A stretch of 64,000 nucleotides of DNA, taken from Collinsella sp. AM17-1 (lineage in GTDB: Bacteria; Actinomycetota; Coriobacteriia; Coriobacteriales; Coriobacteriaceae). Location of the stretch: assembly GCF_003470665.1 (NCBI RefSeq), contig NZ_QRJZ01000003.1, positions 1 through 64,000 of the forward strand. Direction: 5' to 3'. Under the pieces are notes generated by a model. It saw nothing but the letters and a program-made list of their open reading frames with translations. It was not told the origin of the DNA and did no database searches. Positions 30,009 through 34,568 of the stretch are shown here, piece after piece. Each line of letters begins with the position of its first letter. Positions within the stretch are counted from its first letter, which is position 1. The position numbers and the translations under genes are program-made.

Positions 30009-31679
30009 CTAAACCTCCATGACGACCGGGATGATCATCGGACGAGTGCGCGTACGGCTCCAGATAAAGTTAGAGAGCGAGTCGCGCACGGCCTTGCGAA
30101 TGGCATCGGAACCGCTGCTCGTAAAGCTGAACTTGCCCTTCTCGATCGTCTTCATGATGGACGCCGAGGCGTCCTCGGAGAACTGGTCGTCGATGGCAAA
30201 GGAGACGCCGCGGCCCGAGAACTCGATGGCCTCGATCTTCTTGTGCTTGAGCGAAACGATAGCGACAGCCGTGACCATACCGTCGTTGGCAAGCTTCTGA
30301 CGATCGCGCAGAACGATGGGGTCGGTATCGCCGATACGCAGTCCGTCGACGTAGACGACGCCAGACTCGACGGGCGTACCGCGCTTAACGATACCGCCGC
30401 GCATCTCGAGCGTATCTCCGTTGTCGAGGATAAAGATATGATCGTCCTTGAGGCCCATCTTACGAGCAAGCTGGGCATGGGCGCGCAGATGCACGGCCTC
30501 GCCGTGGACCGGCATAAAGTACGTAGGCTTGGCCATGGCCATCAGGAGCTTGAGCTCCTCCTGGCTACCGTGACCCGAGACGTGAACAAGGGCGCGGTTC
30601 TTATCCCACACGTCGCAGCCAAGCTTGGCGAGACTGTTGACGACCTGCTGAACGGCCTTCTCGTTACCGGGGACCGGCGTTGCCGAGAGGATGACGGTAT
30701 CGCCCTCGTGGATGGAGAGCGTCTTGTGCTCGCCGTTGGCCATGCGCGAAAGGGCCGACAGAGGCTCGCCCTGCGAACCAGTGCACATGACGACGATCTT
30801 GTCGTCGGGCAGGTTATCAATATCGAAAGCATCGAGGATATCGGCATCATCGATGTTGAGATAACCGAGCTCGCGCGCCACGCGGGTGTTGGTGAGCATG
30901 GAACGTCCGGTCACGACGACCTTACGGCCGCACTTGCGGGCGGCGTCGCAAATCTGCTGCAGACGATGGATGTGGCTCGAGAACGACGCGACGAACACGC
31001 GGCCCGGAGCATTCTTAATGGCATGCAGCAGATTAGGGCCAACCTCGGCCTCGGACTTGGTAAAACCGGGGACCGTGGCGTTGGTGGAGTCGGACAGCAG
31101 CAGGTCGATGCCCTGCTTGGCAAAGCGGCTGATAGCGGCATAGTCGGGCGTGACGCCGTCGATGGGCGTCTGGTCGAGCTTAAAGTCGCCGGTGTGCATA
31201 ACGGTGCCCTGGTTGGTGCGGATAAACACGCCCAGAGCGCCCGGGATGGAGTGCGTCATCGAGAAGAAGTCGAGCGAGATGCCACCCAAATTGACGTGGC
31301 TACCGCCCTTGACCTCACGGAACTTGGGTGCGCGGATGCGGAACTCAGAGAGCTTGCCCTCGATAAAGCCGAGCGTCAGCTTGCTCGAGAAGATGGGCAC
31401 CTTGTTGTTGAGGTCCTGCAGCAGGTACGGAAGCGAACCGGTGTGGTCCTCGTGGCCGTGGGTGACGATGATGCCGCGAAGCTTTTCCTCGTTCTCCAGA
31501 ACGTAGGTGTAATCCGGAAGCACCAGGTCGATACCGGGCTGCGAGTCATCGGGGAACATGAGGCCAGCATCGACGAGCACCATGTCGTCGCCGCACTCGA
31601 AGACCGTCATGTTCTTGCCGATGCCATCAAGGCCGCCGAGCGGGATGATCTTCAAGGGAGATGATTTTTTAGCTGCCAT
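30009..31679 (-). CDS. rnj: Ribonuclease J
   Basis: The 556-residue protein is a metallo-beta-lactamase/beta-CASP nuclease with the zinc motif VTHGHEDHTGSLPY (about residue 80), CTGSQGEPLSAL and a C-terminal dimerisation domain. RNase J has 5'-to-3' exonuclease and endonuclease activity in mRNA decay and rRNA maturation. I chose the ATG at 31679 (MAAKKSSP), with GAAAGGA about 13 bases upstream; the open frame extends further without support. It lies one base before ftsK. Confidence 0.95.
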   Translation of the reverse strand: MAAKKSSPLKIIPLGGLDGIGKNMTVFECGDDMVLVDAGLMFPDDSQPGIDLVLPDYTYVLENEEKLRGIIVTHGHEDHTGSLPYLLQDLNNKVPIFSSKLTLGFIEGKLSEFRIRAPKFREVKGGSHVNLGGISLDFFSMTHSIPGALGVFIRTNQGTVMHTGDFKLDQTPIDGVTPDYAAISRFAKQGIDLLLSDSTNATVPGFTKSEAEVGPNLLHAIKNAPGRVFVASFSSHIHRLQQICDAARKCGRKVVVTGRSMLTNTRVARELGYLNIDDADILDAFDIDNLPDDKIVVMCTGSQGEPLSALSRMANGEHKTLSIHEGDTVILSATPVPGNEKAVQQVVNSLAKLGCDVWDKNRALVHVSGHGSQEELKLLMAMAKPTYFMPVHGEAVHLRAHAQLARKMGLKDDHIFILDNGDTLEMRGGIVKRGTPVESGVVYVDGLRIGDTDPIVLRDRQKLANDGMVTAVAIVSLKHKKIEAIEFSGRGVSFAIDDQFSEDASASIMKTIEKGKFSFTSSGSDAIRKAVRDSLSNFIWSRTRTRPMIIPVVMEV

Positions 31680-31867
31680 AGGTGAGTGTTGTTTCCTTTC
31701 TTCGAAACGGGTCTGAAACAACCGACGGGGCGCTTCTGGCAAACCGACCGTCGGGAACGTACAAACATGCATCACGGAGTCGACACATTAACCACAGTAT
31801 GATACCCATTTGCACAACAACAGACCACCCATGCATCAAAGCCCCATCTGAACCTGTGTATCCCGCC

Positions 31868-32002
31868 GGTTCCCCGCGAGGGCGGGCACGGATGAAGTTT
31901 CCTGCTCTACAGTCCTGCTCACGACGGAGGCCACATTAAGTGGCCTCCTGTTCGTGCGGAACTCGCGATAAACTTCATCCGTGCCCGCCCTCGCGGGGAA
32001 CC
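31868..32002. repeat. Nested-hairpin element, copy 1
   Basis: Perfect 33-base arms (31868-31900 and 31970-32002) flank a 69-base core (31901-31969). The core has its own hairpin with a nine-base stem around ATTAA. The innermost nine arm bases (ATGAAGTTT/AAACTTCAT) and the core recur in copy 2. Confidence 0.92.
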
Positions 32003-32126
32003 TACCAAAAAGGGACAGGTTTATTTTGGTTGGTTTTATCTGGGGATATGCCGCTGCGTCTGACTATAGATCTGAAATTTGACTACTGATTAGACTGTCC
32101 AACTAAATAGCGAGTGGCACTAACAA

Positions 32127-32275
32127 GCCCTTTTGCTTGTGCCCGGGAGGGACGCATATGAAGTTTATCGCGAGTTCCGCACGCAAAGGAAAGCACTTAA
32201 TGTGCTTTCCGTCTTGCGCAGGACTGTAGAGCAGGAAACTTCATATGCGGCCCTCCCGGGCGCAAGCAAAAGGGC
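32127..32275. repeat. Nested-hairpin element, copy 2 (inverted)
   Basis: The 40-base arms (32127-32166 and 32236-32275) pair with two mismatches around a 69-base core (32167-32235). Read on the minus strand the core matches copy 1 at 59 of 69 positions. The outer arm sequences are unrelated to copy 1. The right arm runs into the pnp terminator. Confidence 0.92.
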
Positions 32276-32298
32276 GACCCCTGTCCGGAGTCGCCCTT
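32270..32298 (-). terminator. Terminator after pnp
   Basis: The arms AAGGGCGAC and GTCGCCCTT pair perfectly around an 11-base loop. TTTT follows on the minus strand. Its distal arm overlaps the end of hairpin element copy 2. Confidence 0.85.
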
Positions 32299-32321
32299 GT
32301 TGAGCTGCTTATGTGCGGCTG

Positions 32322-34568
32322 TTACTCGGCGTCGTGGTGACGACGGGGCTTGCGGCCTCCGTTGTCGCCGGGACGGCGCGGACGGTCGCTGCGCTCGGAG
32401 CGCTCGCGACGCGGACGCTCACGGCGCTGGAAGTGCTCGCCGTCGCCCTCGGAGGCACCCTCGGCGCGAGCCGGGGCCTCAGGCTTGTCGAGACGATCGA
32501 GCGAGATCTTGCCGCGATCGTCGACCTCGATGACGACGACCTTGACCTCGTCGCCCACGTTGAGGACGTCCTCGACCTTCTCCACACGACCCTTGGCGAC
32601 GCGGGAGATGTGCAGCAGGCCGTCCTTACCGGGCAGCAGGTTCACGAAGGCACCGAACGGCTGGATGGAGACAACACGACCGGCGTACTCCTCGCCCGGC
32701 TCGGGAACCTTGATAATGAGCTTGATGCGCTCGACGGCCTGATCGACGGATTCGCCGGTGCCGCCGACAAAGACGGTGCCGTCCTCCTGGATGTCGACCG
32801 AAGCGCCGGTCTCGTCCTGGATGCCGCGGATGACCTTGCCGCCAGAACCGATGACGTCACGGATCTTATCGGTCGGAACCTGGATGGAGACGATGCGCGG
32901 AGCGGTGCTGCGCGTGGTATGACGCGGCTCGGGGATCACATCGAGCATCTTCTGCAGGATGAAGGCGCGACCCTCCTTGGCCTGCTGCAGGGCGCGGGCC
33001 AGGATGTCGAAGGTAAGACCGGTGGCCTTGTTGTCCATCTGCAGGGCGGTGATGCCCTCGGTGGTGCCGGTGACCTTAAAGTCCATGTCGCCCAGGAAGT
33101 CCTCGAGACCCTGGATGTCGGACAGGACCACGGTCTTGCCCTCCTCCTGGATCAGACCCATGGCGATACCGGAGACGGGGCGCTTAATGGGCACGCCGCC
33201 GTCCATAAGGGCGAGCGTGGAGCCGCAGGTCGAAGCCATCGAAGAGGAGCCGTTGGACTCCATGACCTCGGAGACCACACGGATAGCGTAGGGGAACTCG
33301 TTCTCGTCGGGGAGCACCGGAAGCAGGGCGCGCTCGGCAAGGTTGCCGTGACCGATCTCGCGGCGCTTGGGGCTGCCCATGCGGCCGGTCTCGCCGGTGC
33401 AAAACGGCGGGAAGTTGTAGTGGTGCATATAGCGCTTGCCCTCGGTGGGCTCGATGGTATCCAGACGCTGGCCCTCGTTAAGCATGCCGAGCGACAGGAC
33501 GGAGAGCACCTGAGTCTGGCCACGCTGGAACAGGCCGGAGCCGTGAACGAGCGGCAGGTAGTTGTCCTTCACCATGATGGGACGGATCTCGTCGGCGGCA
33601 CGGCCGTCGACACGCTCGCCGGTCTCGACGACCATGGTGCGCATGGCCTTCTTCTCGAGCTTCTTAAGCGCCACGGGGATCTCGCGCTCCCAGGCGGCCT
33701 GCTCCTCGTCGGTGAACTCAGCGCGGATGGACTCCTTCAGAGCCTCGACCTTGCCGATGCGGGAAAGCTTGTCGGCGTCGCGCAGGGCAGCGGCCATCTC
33801 GTCGTAGTGGGCGAAGATGCGCTCCTGGACCTCCTCGACGGGCTGGTCGAGCGGGTACTCCTTCTTGACGATAGCGCCGTTGACCTGCTCCCACTCGGCG
33901 ACGAACTCGTCTTGGGCCTGGCAGAAGGCAGCGAGGGCCTCCTGGCCAAACTTCATAGCGGCGAGCATGTCGTCCTCGGAGATCTCCTCGGCGCCAGCCT
34001 CGACCATCGAGATGAAGTCGGCAGAGCCGCCCAGCTCAAGGTCCAGATCGGAGTTCTCGCGCTCCTCATAGGTGGGGTTGACGATAAACTCGCCGGTCTC
34101 CACGTTGCGGCCGATGCGCACGCAGGCAAGCGGGCCCTCGAAGGGCACGCCGCCGAGCGTCATGGCCAGCGAAGCACCCATGACGTTGATGACGTCGAAG
34201 GGGTTGACCTGGTCGGCGACGAGCGAGGTGGCGACGATGTGCACCTCGTTGCGGAAGCCGTCCGGGAAGCTCGGGCGAATCGGGCGGTCGATCATGCGGG
34301 CCGTGAGCGTGGCCTTCTCGCTGGGACGGCCCTCGCGCTTGAGGTAGCCACCCGGGATACGGCCGGCAGCGTACATCTTCTCGTTGAAGTCGACGGTCAG
34401 CGGGAAGAAGTCGTAATTCTTGCGCTCCTTGGAGACGACCACGGTGTCGAGCATCGTGGTGTCGCCCTGCTTGACCAGGCAAGCGCCGGTGGCCTGCTTG
34501 GCAAGCTCGCCGGACTCGAAGGTGTAGGTCTTGCCGTACAGCTCAAAGGTCTTGGATACGAGTGTCAT
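32322..34568 (-). CDS. pnp: Polyribonucleotide nucleotidyltransferase
   Basis: The 748-residue exoribonuclease has two RNase PH domains, the central helical domain, a KH domain (VIGSGGKVIRGIQDETGAS) and an S1 domain (GEEYAGRVVSIQPFGAFVNLLPG). It ends in a long Arg/Asp-rich tail (about 35 residues) that may bind RNA. It degrades RNA 3'-to-5' using phosphate. The ATG at 34568 follows AAAGGAG. A GC hairpin just upstream (34578-34602) could take part in autoregulation, as known for pnp in other bacteria. Confidence 0.97.
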   Translation of the reverse strand: MTLVSKTFELYGKTYTFESGELAKQATGACLVKQGDTTMLDTVVVSKERKNYDFFPLTVDFNEKMYAAGRIPGGYLKREGRPSEKATLTARMIDRPIRPSFPDGFRNEVHIVATSLVADQVNPFDVINVMGASLAMTLGGVPFEGPLACVRIGRNVETGEFIVNPTYEERENSDLDLELGGSADFISMVEAGAEEISEDDMLAAMKFGQEALAAFCQAQDEFVAEWEQVNGAIVKKEYPLDQPVEEVQERIFAHYDEMAAALRDADKLSRIGKVEALKESIRAEFTDEEQAAWEREIPVALKKLEKKAMRTMVVETGERVDGRAADEIRPIMVKDNYLPLVHGSGLFQRGQTQVLSVLSLGMLNEGQRLDTIEPTEGKRYMHHYNFPPFCTGETGRMGSPKRREIGHGNLAERALLPVLPDENEFPYAIRVVSEVMESNGSSSMASTCGSTLALMDGGVPIKRPVSGIAMGLIQEEGKTVVLSDIQGLEDFLGDMDFKVTGTTEGITALQMDNKATGLTFDILARALQQAKEGRAFILQKMLDVIPEPRHTTRSTAPRIVSIQVPTDKIRDVIGSGGKVIRGIQDETGASVDIQEDGTVFVGGTGESVDQAVERIKLIIKVPEPGEEYAGRVVSIQPFGAFVNLLPGKDGLLHISRVAKGRVEKVEDVLNVGDEVKVVVIEVDDRGKISLDRLDKPEAPARAEGASEGDGEHFQRRERPRRERSERSDRPRRPGDNGGRKPRRHHDAE

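What the first reader, a model, noticed from the sequence alone, without database searches (positions are those of the whole stretch)
31868..32275. Two nested-hairpin elements with a conserved core whose stem changes are compensatory
Copies 31868-32002 and 32127-32275 face each other. Each has a 69-base core inside long complementary arms. The cores agree at 59 of 69 positions. Eight of the ten differences form four paired changes: three consecutive base pairs in the inner stem around ATTAA (G-C to A-T, G-C to A-T, C-G to G-C) and one in the flanking helix. The arms beyond the shared ATGAAGTTT differ completely between copies yet stay self-complementary. Covariation points to selection on a folded structure (RNA or extruded DNA), in a family not obvious from known elements.
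Basis: seen in the sequence. Interest (0 to 1): 0.75.

Follow-up and report, generated by a model that had tools for sequence, protein, structure and literature searches.

The report
Gene-edge hairpin repeats of Coriobacteriia
The two hairpins belong to a family of long DNA/RNA hairpins, absent from the public RNA-family library, that sit beside genes in many gut bacteria of one class; they share a small conserved core inside arms whose sequence keeps changing while the two sides stay matched, and what they do is not yet known.

Summary
The two copies lie between pnp and rnj of a Collinsella aerofaciens-like genome and belong to a large family: 25-31 distinct strong places in each of three related genomes, matches in 40 of 43 Collinsella genomes, and recognisable members in other Coriobacteriia families and in one family outside the class. 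Anatomy: near-perfect, site-specific arms (median 30 bp); a conserved module GCGAGTTCCGCA...AGGACTG...GAGC; a variable apical stem. All 26 arm pairs counted show double changes. Elements are polar: the AGGACTG end lies within 35 nt of a gene edge at 40 of 72 distinct sites, the other end at 8 of 63. And sites are mostly inherited while arms are rewritten in step, with matched length changes and core-less hairpins, so arm covariation probably reflects DNA arm-to-arm copying at least in part and does not by itself prove an RNA. Best reading: a vertically maintained folded-strand element at transcript boundaries; RNA against single-stranded DNA is undecided. No Rfam match; my literature searches found no description.

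The parts
31868..32002 (-). Element 1 (135 nt); strand given is the one reading GCGAGTTCCGCACG...AGGACTG (model strand R1). AGGACTG end (31868 side) faces rnj, 188 nt from its start
   Evidence: 138.4 bits, E 1.4e-29
31868..31900 (.). Arm of element 1, AGGACTG side (33 of 33 paired)
31901..31969 (-). 69-nt core of element 1: conserved module, 9-bp apical stem, loop TTAAT
31970..32002 (.). Arm of element 1, GTTCC side
32127..32275 (+). Element 2 (149 nt), R1 strand +; AGGACTG end (32275 side) faces the pnp stop, 46 nt away
   Evidence: 128.8 bits, E 2.2e-27
32127..32166 (.). Arm of element 2, GTTCC side (38 of 40 paired)
32167..32235 (+). 69-nt core of element 2
32236..32275 (.). Arm of element 2, AGGACTG side; its outer end overlaps the 3' half and T-run of the pnp terminator-like hairpin, with the inverted copy at 32127-32139
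32270..32298 (-). Intrinsic-terminator-like hairpin after pnp (AAGGGCGACTCC..GGGGTCGCCCTTTT), context
32322..34568 (-). pnp (polyribonucleotide nucleotidyltransferase), upstream gene
   Evidence: named by the annotated orthologous region
30009..31679 (-). rnj (ribonuclease J), downstream gene; start taken from the annotated orthologue

Best explanation
This is a dispersed, mostly vertically inherited family of intergenic hairpin elements. SHOWN: a conserved two-loop core module sits inside site-specific, near-perfect arms; the element has a direction, its AGGACTG end tending to lie against a gene's stop codon (mostly) or start codon; sites persist while both arms, the apical stem and sometimes the orientation change together. 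INFERRED: (1) a folded strand, the GTTCC...AGGACTG strand, is what a cell factor recognises through the core, while the arms only have to be double-stranded; (2) it acts as a boundary hairpin in transcripts (3' or 5' untranslated regions or outgoing antisense transcripts), stabilising, processing or ending RNA at gene edges; (3) arms are renewed by template switching or arm-to-arm copying in DNA, perhaps after recombination inside the core has joined two different arms. Steps 1 and 3 are better supported than step 2.
For: Family and anatomy: 35-row alignment, invariant TTCCGCACG and CAGGAC, double changes at 26 of 26 arm pairs, 399 double-change cells against 128.7 in shuffles and 79-159 in slid registers. 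Folded strand: the pair at columns 40/88 is U-G in 35 of 35 rows on this strand (A-C on the other). Range. Polarity: AGGACTG end closer to a gene at 47 of 62 distinct sites with genes called on both sides (p 5.8e-5), within 35 nt at 40 of 72 (32 stop, 8 start) against 8 of 63; 10 of 10 close pairs in three genomes have GTTCC ends facing each other, though these are largely the same few sites. Position kept, arms changed: 13 orthologous sites, 19 comparisons, median identity flank 0.92, arm 0.76, core 0.98; 33- against 44-bp arms. valS leader: G045, taken as C. bouchesdurhonensis because its contig length equals that of NZ_LT699739.1, has the element at the same place with unrelated arms. Hybrid arms at three loci (L072, L073, L078), with reduced model scores. 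Template switching is described as making and maintaining hairpins (PMC8794818, abstract and outline seen).
Against: No expression data. The mRNA carries opposite strands of the element at stop-adjacent and start-adjacent genes, which a simple mRNA-acting RNA does not explain. An excess of G-U over A-C in start-adjacent arms (17:2 in 24 elements against 25:21 in 55, p 0.009) vanished after collapsing to distinct sites (6:2 in 11 against 16:12 in 35, p 0.44). The element can be lost: 7 of 22 genomes read at valS have a core-less hairpin, and 3 of 43 Collinsella genomes have no match. Match counts (both strands) range from 1-8 in some Collinsella to 41-54 in others, as for mobile DNA. Three elements upstream of rplC, rpsL and rplJ do not follow the usual polarity to the gene ending nearby. 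The ORF caller is home-made, trained on Collinsella genes, and gene starts are approximate.
Confidence: 0.42

Rival explanations
1. A non-autonomous mobile or formerly mobile single-strand DNA hairpin, working like REP/REPIN elements or attC sites: an unidentified enzyme recognises the folded GTTCC strand, cores spread or convert between loci, and elements survive at gene edges because that is where they do least harm.
For: High and lineage-specific copy number; strand-specific core; face-to-face pairs; apical CACTTAATGTG in 26 of 28 G001 copies although the valS copy of G045 has GGCGCCGGTGGCGCC, suggesting copying between loci; variable gene content between or beside paired elements.
Against: Over about 480 kb of G024 compared with G040 I saw changed, lost, inverted or hybrid elements and one extra element in G040 next to a different gene segment, but no clean new insertion. 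No target duplication at the one core-less site. Y1 transposase (PF01797) is absent from element-bearing G047, G006 and G119 and present in G014 and G016, which have 1 and 3 element matches. No match in phages; the 11 viral-contig pattern hits show no complementary arms by eye.
Confidence: 0.3
2. Mostly mutational by-product: palindromes near gene ends are kept perfect by replication template switching, and the core is a passenger with no present function.
For: Arms change in both halves together and faster than flanks; core-less hairpins keep the arms, 3 of 7 perfectly.
Against: Core shared across families and into another class, median core identity 0.98 where arms are 0.76, and polarity towards genes are not expected of a passenger.
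Confidence: 0.13
3. Transcription terminators: each element ends transcription leaving a gene.
For: Many sit just after a stop codon, with little room for another terminator.
Against: No T-run: 5 of 250 flanks (125 elements) have 6 or more T in the 10 nt after an arm; pnp has its own T-run hairpin before element 2; a minority lie just before start codons.
Confidence: 0.12

Closest known systems
REP / BIME / REPIN elements with RAYT (PMC3733652, abstract and passages seen; PMC8266576, search listing only)
   Same: Dispersed extragenic imperfect palindromes, tens of copies per genome; strand polarity and inverted pairs as recalled for REPs
   Different: 20-40 bp with a GTAG or CGTC tag at one end; here 110-150 nt, the conserved part is inside and the feet are free; no consistent Y1 transposase
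Small mobile repeats (SMR-A) and palindrome-associated elements (PATE) of Haloquadratum (PMC3119063, passages seen)
   Same: Short repeats of about 110 bp associated with or inserted in palindromes, no target duplication, up to 54 copies
   Different: SMR-A have prominent inverted terminal repeats and target IS605-type palindromes; here the terminal arms are not conserved; I did not search for an IS605-type host element at each site
Integron attC sites (recalled)
   Same: Variable hairpins recognised as a folded single strand through a few conserved features
   Different: attC keeps its outer core sites; here the outer arms vary and the centre is conserved
Collinsella-1 RNA, RF01700 (PMC2864571, table passage seen)
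   Same: Candidate structured RNA listed for Actinobacteria / human gut
   Different: No Rfam model matched the elements at its cut-off
Candidate structured RNAs of human microbiomes, e.g. HMP2_254 of Collinsella (PMC8040213, one passage seen)
   Same: Computed candidates in Collinsella; HMP2_254 is 51 bp, directly upstream of ribosomal protein L7/L12
   Different: Its sequence and the paper's supplementary lists were not seen, so I cannot exclude that pieces of this family are among those candidates

Membership tests
Any Rfam 15 family, incl. Collinsella-1 | Match to the curated covariance model | tested here: not met
   0 matches at gathering score in the window; over window 31800-32330 only CcsR1, 17.6 bits against a cut-off of 65.3; over 16 loci of other genomes 4 matches, none at its cut-off
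REP/REPIN-RAYT | Conserved GTAG or CGTC tag at one end of the hairpin | tested here: not met
   Outer arms are different sequence in the 35 aligned copies; no separate tag search was made
REP/REPIN-RAYT | Associated Y1 (RAYT) transposase | tested here: not met
   PF01797 absent in 13 of 30 genomes searched, including element-bearing G047, G006 and G119; other HUH enzymes not tested
MITE | Conserved terminal inverted repeats | tested here: not met
   All 26 arm pairs vary between copies
MITE | Target-site duplication at an empty site | tested here: inconclusive
   The one core-less site keeps the hairpin stem, shows no duplication and looks like core loss
Intrinsic terminator | G+C hairpin followed by a U-tract | tested here: not met
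   5 of 250 flanks with 6 or more T in 10 nt
Integron attC | Conserved outer core sites and an integron integrase | tested here: inconclusive
   Outer arms vary; integrase not searched
Structured RNA | Covariation beyond what related DNA palindromes give | tested here: inconclusive
   Strong pair covariation but coordinated arm changes point to DNA copying; G-U/A-C strand asymmetry not significant by site
Structured RNA | Transcription of the folded strand | not testable with these tools
   No RNA-seq available

The most novel reading that the evidence does not exclude
A new class of folded-strand genetic element in which only an internal core is the heritable signal: the core is copied between loci and recognised by an unknown Coriobacteriia factor, while the double-stranded arms are continually re-invented by template switching and stay perfect, giving gene-edge hairpins that mark transcript or recombination boundaries in a whole bacterial class.
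Probability: 0.25. Interest if true: 0.85.

Novelty: new variant of a known kind. Interest (0 to 1): 0.62.

Why it matters
It inverts the usual design of bacterial palindromic repeats (fixed ends, free middle). It gives a natural system, with many alleles at fixed sites in one species complex, for measuring how hairpin arms are rewritten in step, a long-standing puzzle in RNA evolution, and it warns that covariation in long bacterial hairpins is not by itself proof of an RNA. If a factor binds the core it would be a widespread, unstudied layer of gene-boundary biology in human gut bacteria (Collinsella and its relatives), beside genes such as pnp/rnj, valS, ptsH and rho.

Tried and rejected
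Viral carriage: none of 11 pattern hits in viral contigs shows complementary arms, judged by eye; no match in phages at E 1e-5; the only plasmid record matched is a C. aerofaciens replicon that carries recA and rpoB/rpoC, so probably chromosomal.

RAYT-driven REPIN family: not supported by the PF01797 distribution.

Founder transposase next to the single copies of three distant genomes: the neighbours are yebC/ruvC, rho and an ABC-transporter permease by my reading of the translations; other distant copies were not checked this way.

Cargo: two hypothetical genes between paired elements gave no Pfam hit above cut-off. Of six proteins around the G040 pair, two passed a cut-off (a sulfatase-domain protein left of the pair, and a fibronectin type III domain in a protein of the segment shared with G024); the proteins of the extra segment had none. 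No mobilising enzyme recognised.

RNA-strand test by wobble pairs: significant over 24 and 55 elements, not after collapse to 11 and 35 sites; dropped. An earlier count whose scoring favoured G-U was replaced.

Fold-back insertion (one arm ancestral, one copied): suggested by the pnp terminator overlap; the valS site argues for core loss rather than insertion, so left open.

Rows dropped: 4 of 129 elements inside a called ORF; sites with under 60 nt of flank and sides without a called gene are not in the counts.

The model R1 also scores other long hairpins, e.g. the opposite strand of each window copy, and match counts count both strands; cap the candidates scored and their lists are cut. The 25-31 distinct places per genome (E below 1e-13) were counted by hand. 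For genomes outside Collinsella I rely on the 30 loci read (30 of 30 show the core by eye, and one search found it by a pattern allowing one substitution per half) and, where 52 of 396 genomes match and the read-backwards control gives 0-3 per genome.

No R-scape was run (not available). Literature searches: (core string) hit 13 papers, none on such an element by title and start of abstract, none opened.

Full report
OBSERVATION. Element 1 (31868-32002) has 33 of 33 paired arm positions, element 2 (32127-32275) 38 of 40; the 69-nt cores agree at 59 of 69, with three consecutive compensated inner-stem pairs, a fourth compensated pair in a shifted register and two unpaired changes. All four strands fold 13-15 standard deviations below shuffles. 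They lie in the pnp-rnj intergenic region, both genes on the minus strand. No Rfam family matches at gathering score, none convincingly at relaxed threshold.

FAMILY. The window's own assembly is not held. In the nearest genome G001, 28 of 29 BLAST matches to the 87-nt centre are real by inspection. A covariance model from 35 copies has matches in 40 of 43 Collinsella genomes. Counting each hairpin once at E below 1e-13, one search gives 31, 28 and 25 places in G040, G008 and G024. In a draw of 296 class genomes 148 have a match; because the model also rewards other long hairpins, I read 30 loci from 20 genomes outside Collinsella, and 30 of 30 show the core with a few substitutions at most. 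An exact-pattern search of 396 phylum genomes matches 52: many Coriobacteriia (43 places in G089, 27 in G001, 0 in the read-backwards control for both) and, outside the class, two genomes of one family, G329 (6 places, control 1) and G315 (1 place, control 0), whose loci have the full anatomy. Other listed hits outside the class show no obvious inner stem by eye and were not tested further.

ANATOMY. Consensus on the model strand: [arm] GCGA GTTC CGCA-[apical stem, variable]-GA GGAC TG-N(2-4)-GAGC [arm], with variants. GTTC and GGAC form a 4-bp helix with an invariant U-G pair (35 of 35). The flanking GA...GA resembles a tandem sheared G-A or kink-turn-like motif (my inference, recalled motif, not modelled). 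Arms in 121 non-redundant elements have a median of 30 bp, 18-58; every one of the 26 aligned arm pairs shows double changes, and 399 double-change cells compare with 128.7 in shuffles. Real arms (median 29 bp, 87 elements) against swapped halves (median 4 over 1717) rule out chance.

POLARITY. With a home-made codon-usage ORF caller, 197 element records collapsed to 74 distinct sites: the AGGACTG end is nearer a gene at 47 of 62 sites with genes called on both sides (p 5.8e-5), and within 35 nt at 40 of 72 (32 stop codons, 8 start codons), against 8 of 63 for the GTTCC end. In three genomes 10 of 10 close pairs have GTTCC ends facing each other, largely the same few sites. In three distant genomes the arm starts 4-8 nt from the stop codon of yebC, rho and an ABC permease gene (names are my reading of the translations). 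Exceptions: elements upstream of rplC, rpsL and rplJ. Because mRNA carries opposite strands at stop- and start-adjacent genes, the polarity is a property of the DNA arrangement.

EVOLUTION. About 480 kb of G024 compared with G040, plus an annotated C. aerofaciens replicon, show most sites shared. Over 13 sites (19 comparisons) median identity is 0.92 for flanks, 0.98 for cores and 0.76 for arms, and in nearly all comparisons each arm still pairs with its partner. Examples: three arm alleles at murB; 33- against 44-bp arms at the tsaD site; opposite orientation of the core before ptsH. Exceptions: G040 has a half element, a hybrid element and one extra element beside a different gene segment. 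At pnp-rnj three loci carry left and right arms of different alleles: recombinants or assembly chimeras. Such coordinated change fits DNA template switching, described as creating and maintaining hairpins (PMC8794818, abstract and outline seen).

MECHANISM. Two processes seem needed: a mutational one that keeps arms matched, and selection (or spread) that keeps the core and its orientation to genes. I favour a folded GTTCC strand acting at transcript boundaries, but the RNA-strand test by wobble pairs failed after correction for non-independence and there are no expression data. A REPIN- or attC-like DNA element is the main rival; against it stand the absence of clean new insertions in the compared regions, of a target duplication at the one core-less site, and of a consistent Y1 transposase.

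KNOWN KINDS. REP/REPIN, MITE, SMR-A/PATE, attC, terminators and Collinsella-1 RNA were compared; the defining features that I could test failed for REP, MITE ends, terminators and Rfam. Papers: passages of PMC3733652, PMC3119063, PMC2864571 and PMC8040213 (its candidate lists were not seen). Searches that found no description of the family; most subscription papers are not in that library.

VERDICT. Interpretation: a family of dispersed structured elements not in Rfam, with an unusual constant-core, free-arm design and gene-edge polarity. Function is inferred, not shown.

Noticed in passing
L071 8700-9830 (C. aerofaciens D40t1): A frame of about 209 aa, an acetyltransferase-like protein by my reading, sits between the paired pnp/rnj elements where the other aligned strains have only spacer.
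   Followed up: partly
G024/G008 manA-uvrD (L242 12689-15038) against G040 (L226 362-483): Two hypothetical genes flanked by facing elements in two strains; in the third the genes are absent and one element with mismatched arms remains.
   Followed up: partly
L072, L073, L078: Elements at pnp/rnj whose left and right arms belong to different alleles: recombinants or assembly chimeras.
   Followed up: no
L070, L077, L080, L082, L083: Five contigs end inside the rnj-side element, so assemblies tend to break at these hairpins.
   Followed up: no
NZ_OY725717.1: 899,693-bp record called 'plasmid 6' carries recA, rpoB, rpoC and ribosomal protein genes, so it is probably a piece of the chromosome.
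   Followed up: partly
window 32236-32298: The outer arm of element 2 overlaps the pnp terminator-like hairpin, so two hairpins compete for the same bases, and the far arm carries the inverted copy.
   Followed up: partly
NZ_OY725717.1 519704, 537730, 552317: Single elements upstream of rplC, rpsL and rplJ do not follow the usual orientation to the gene that ends nearby.
   Followed up: no
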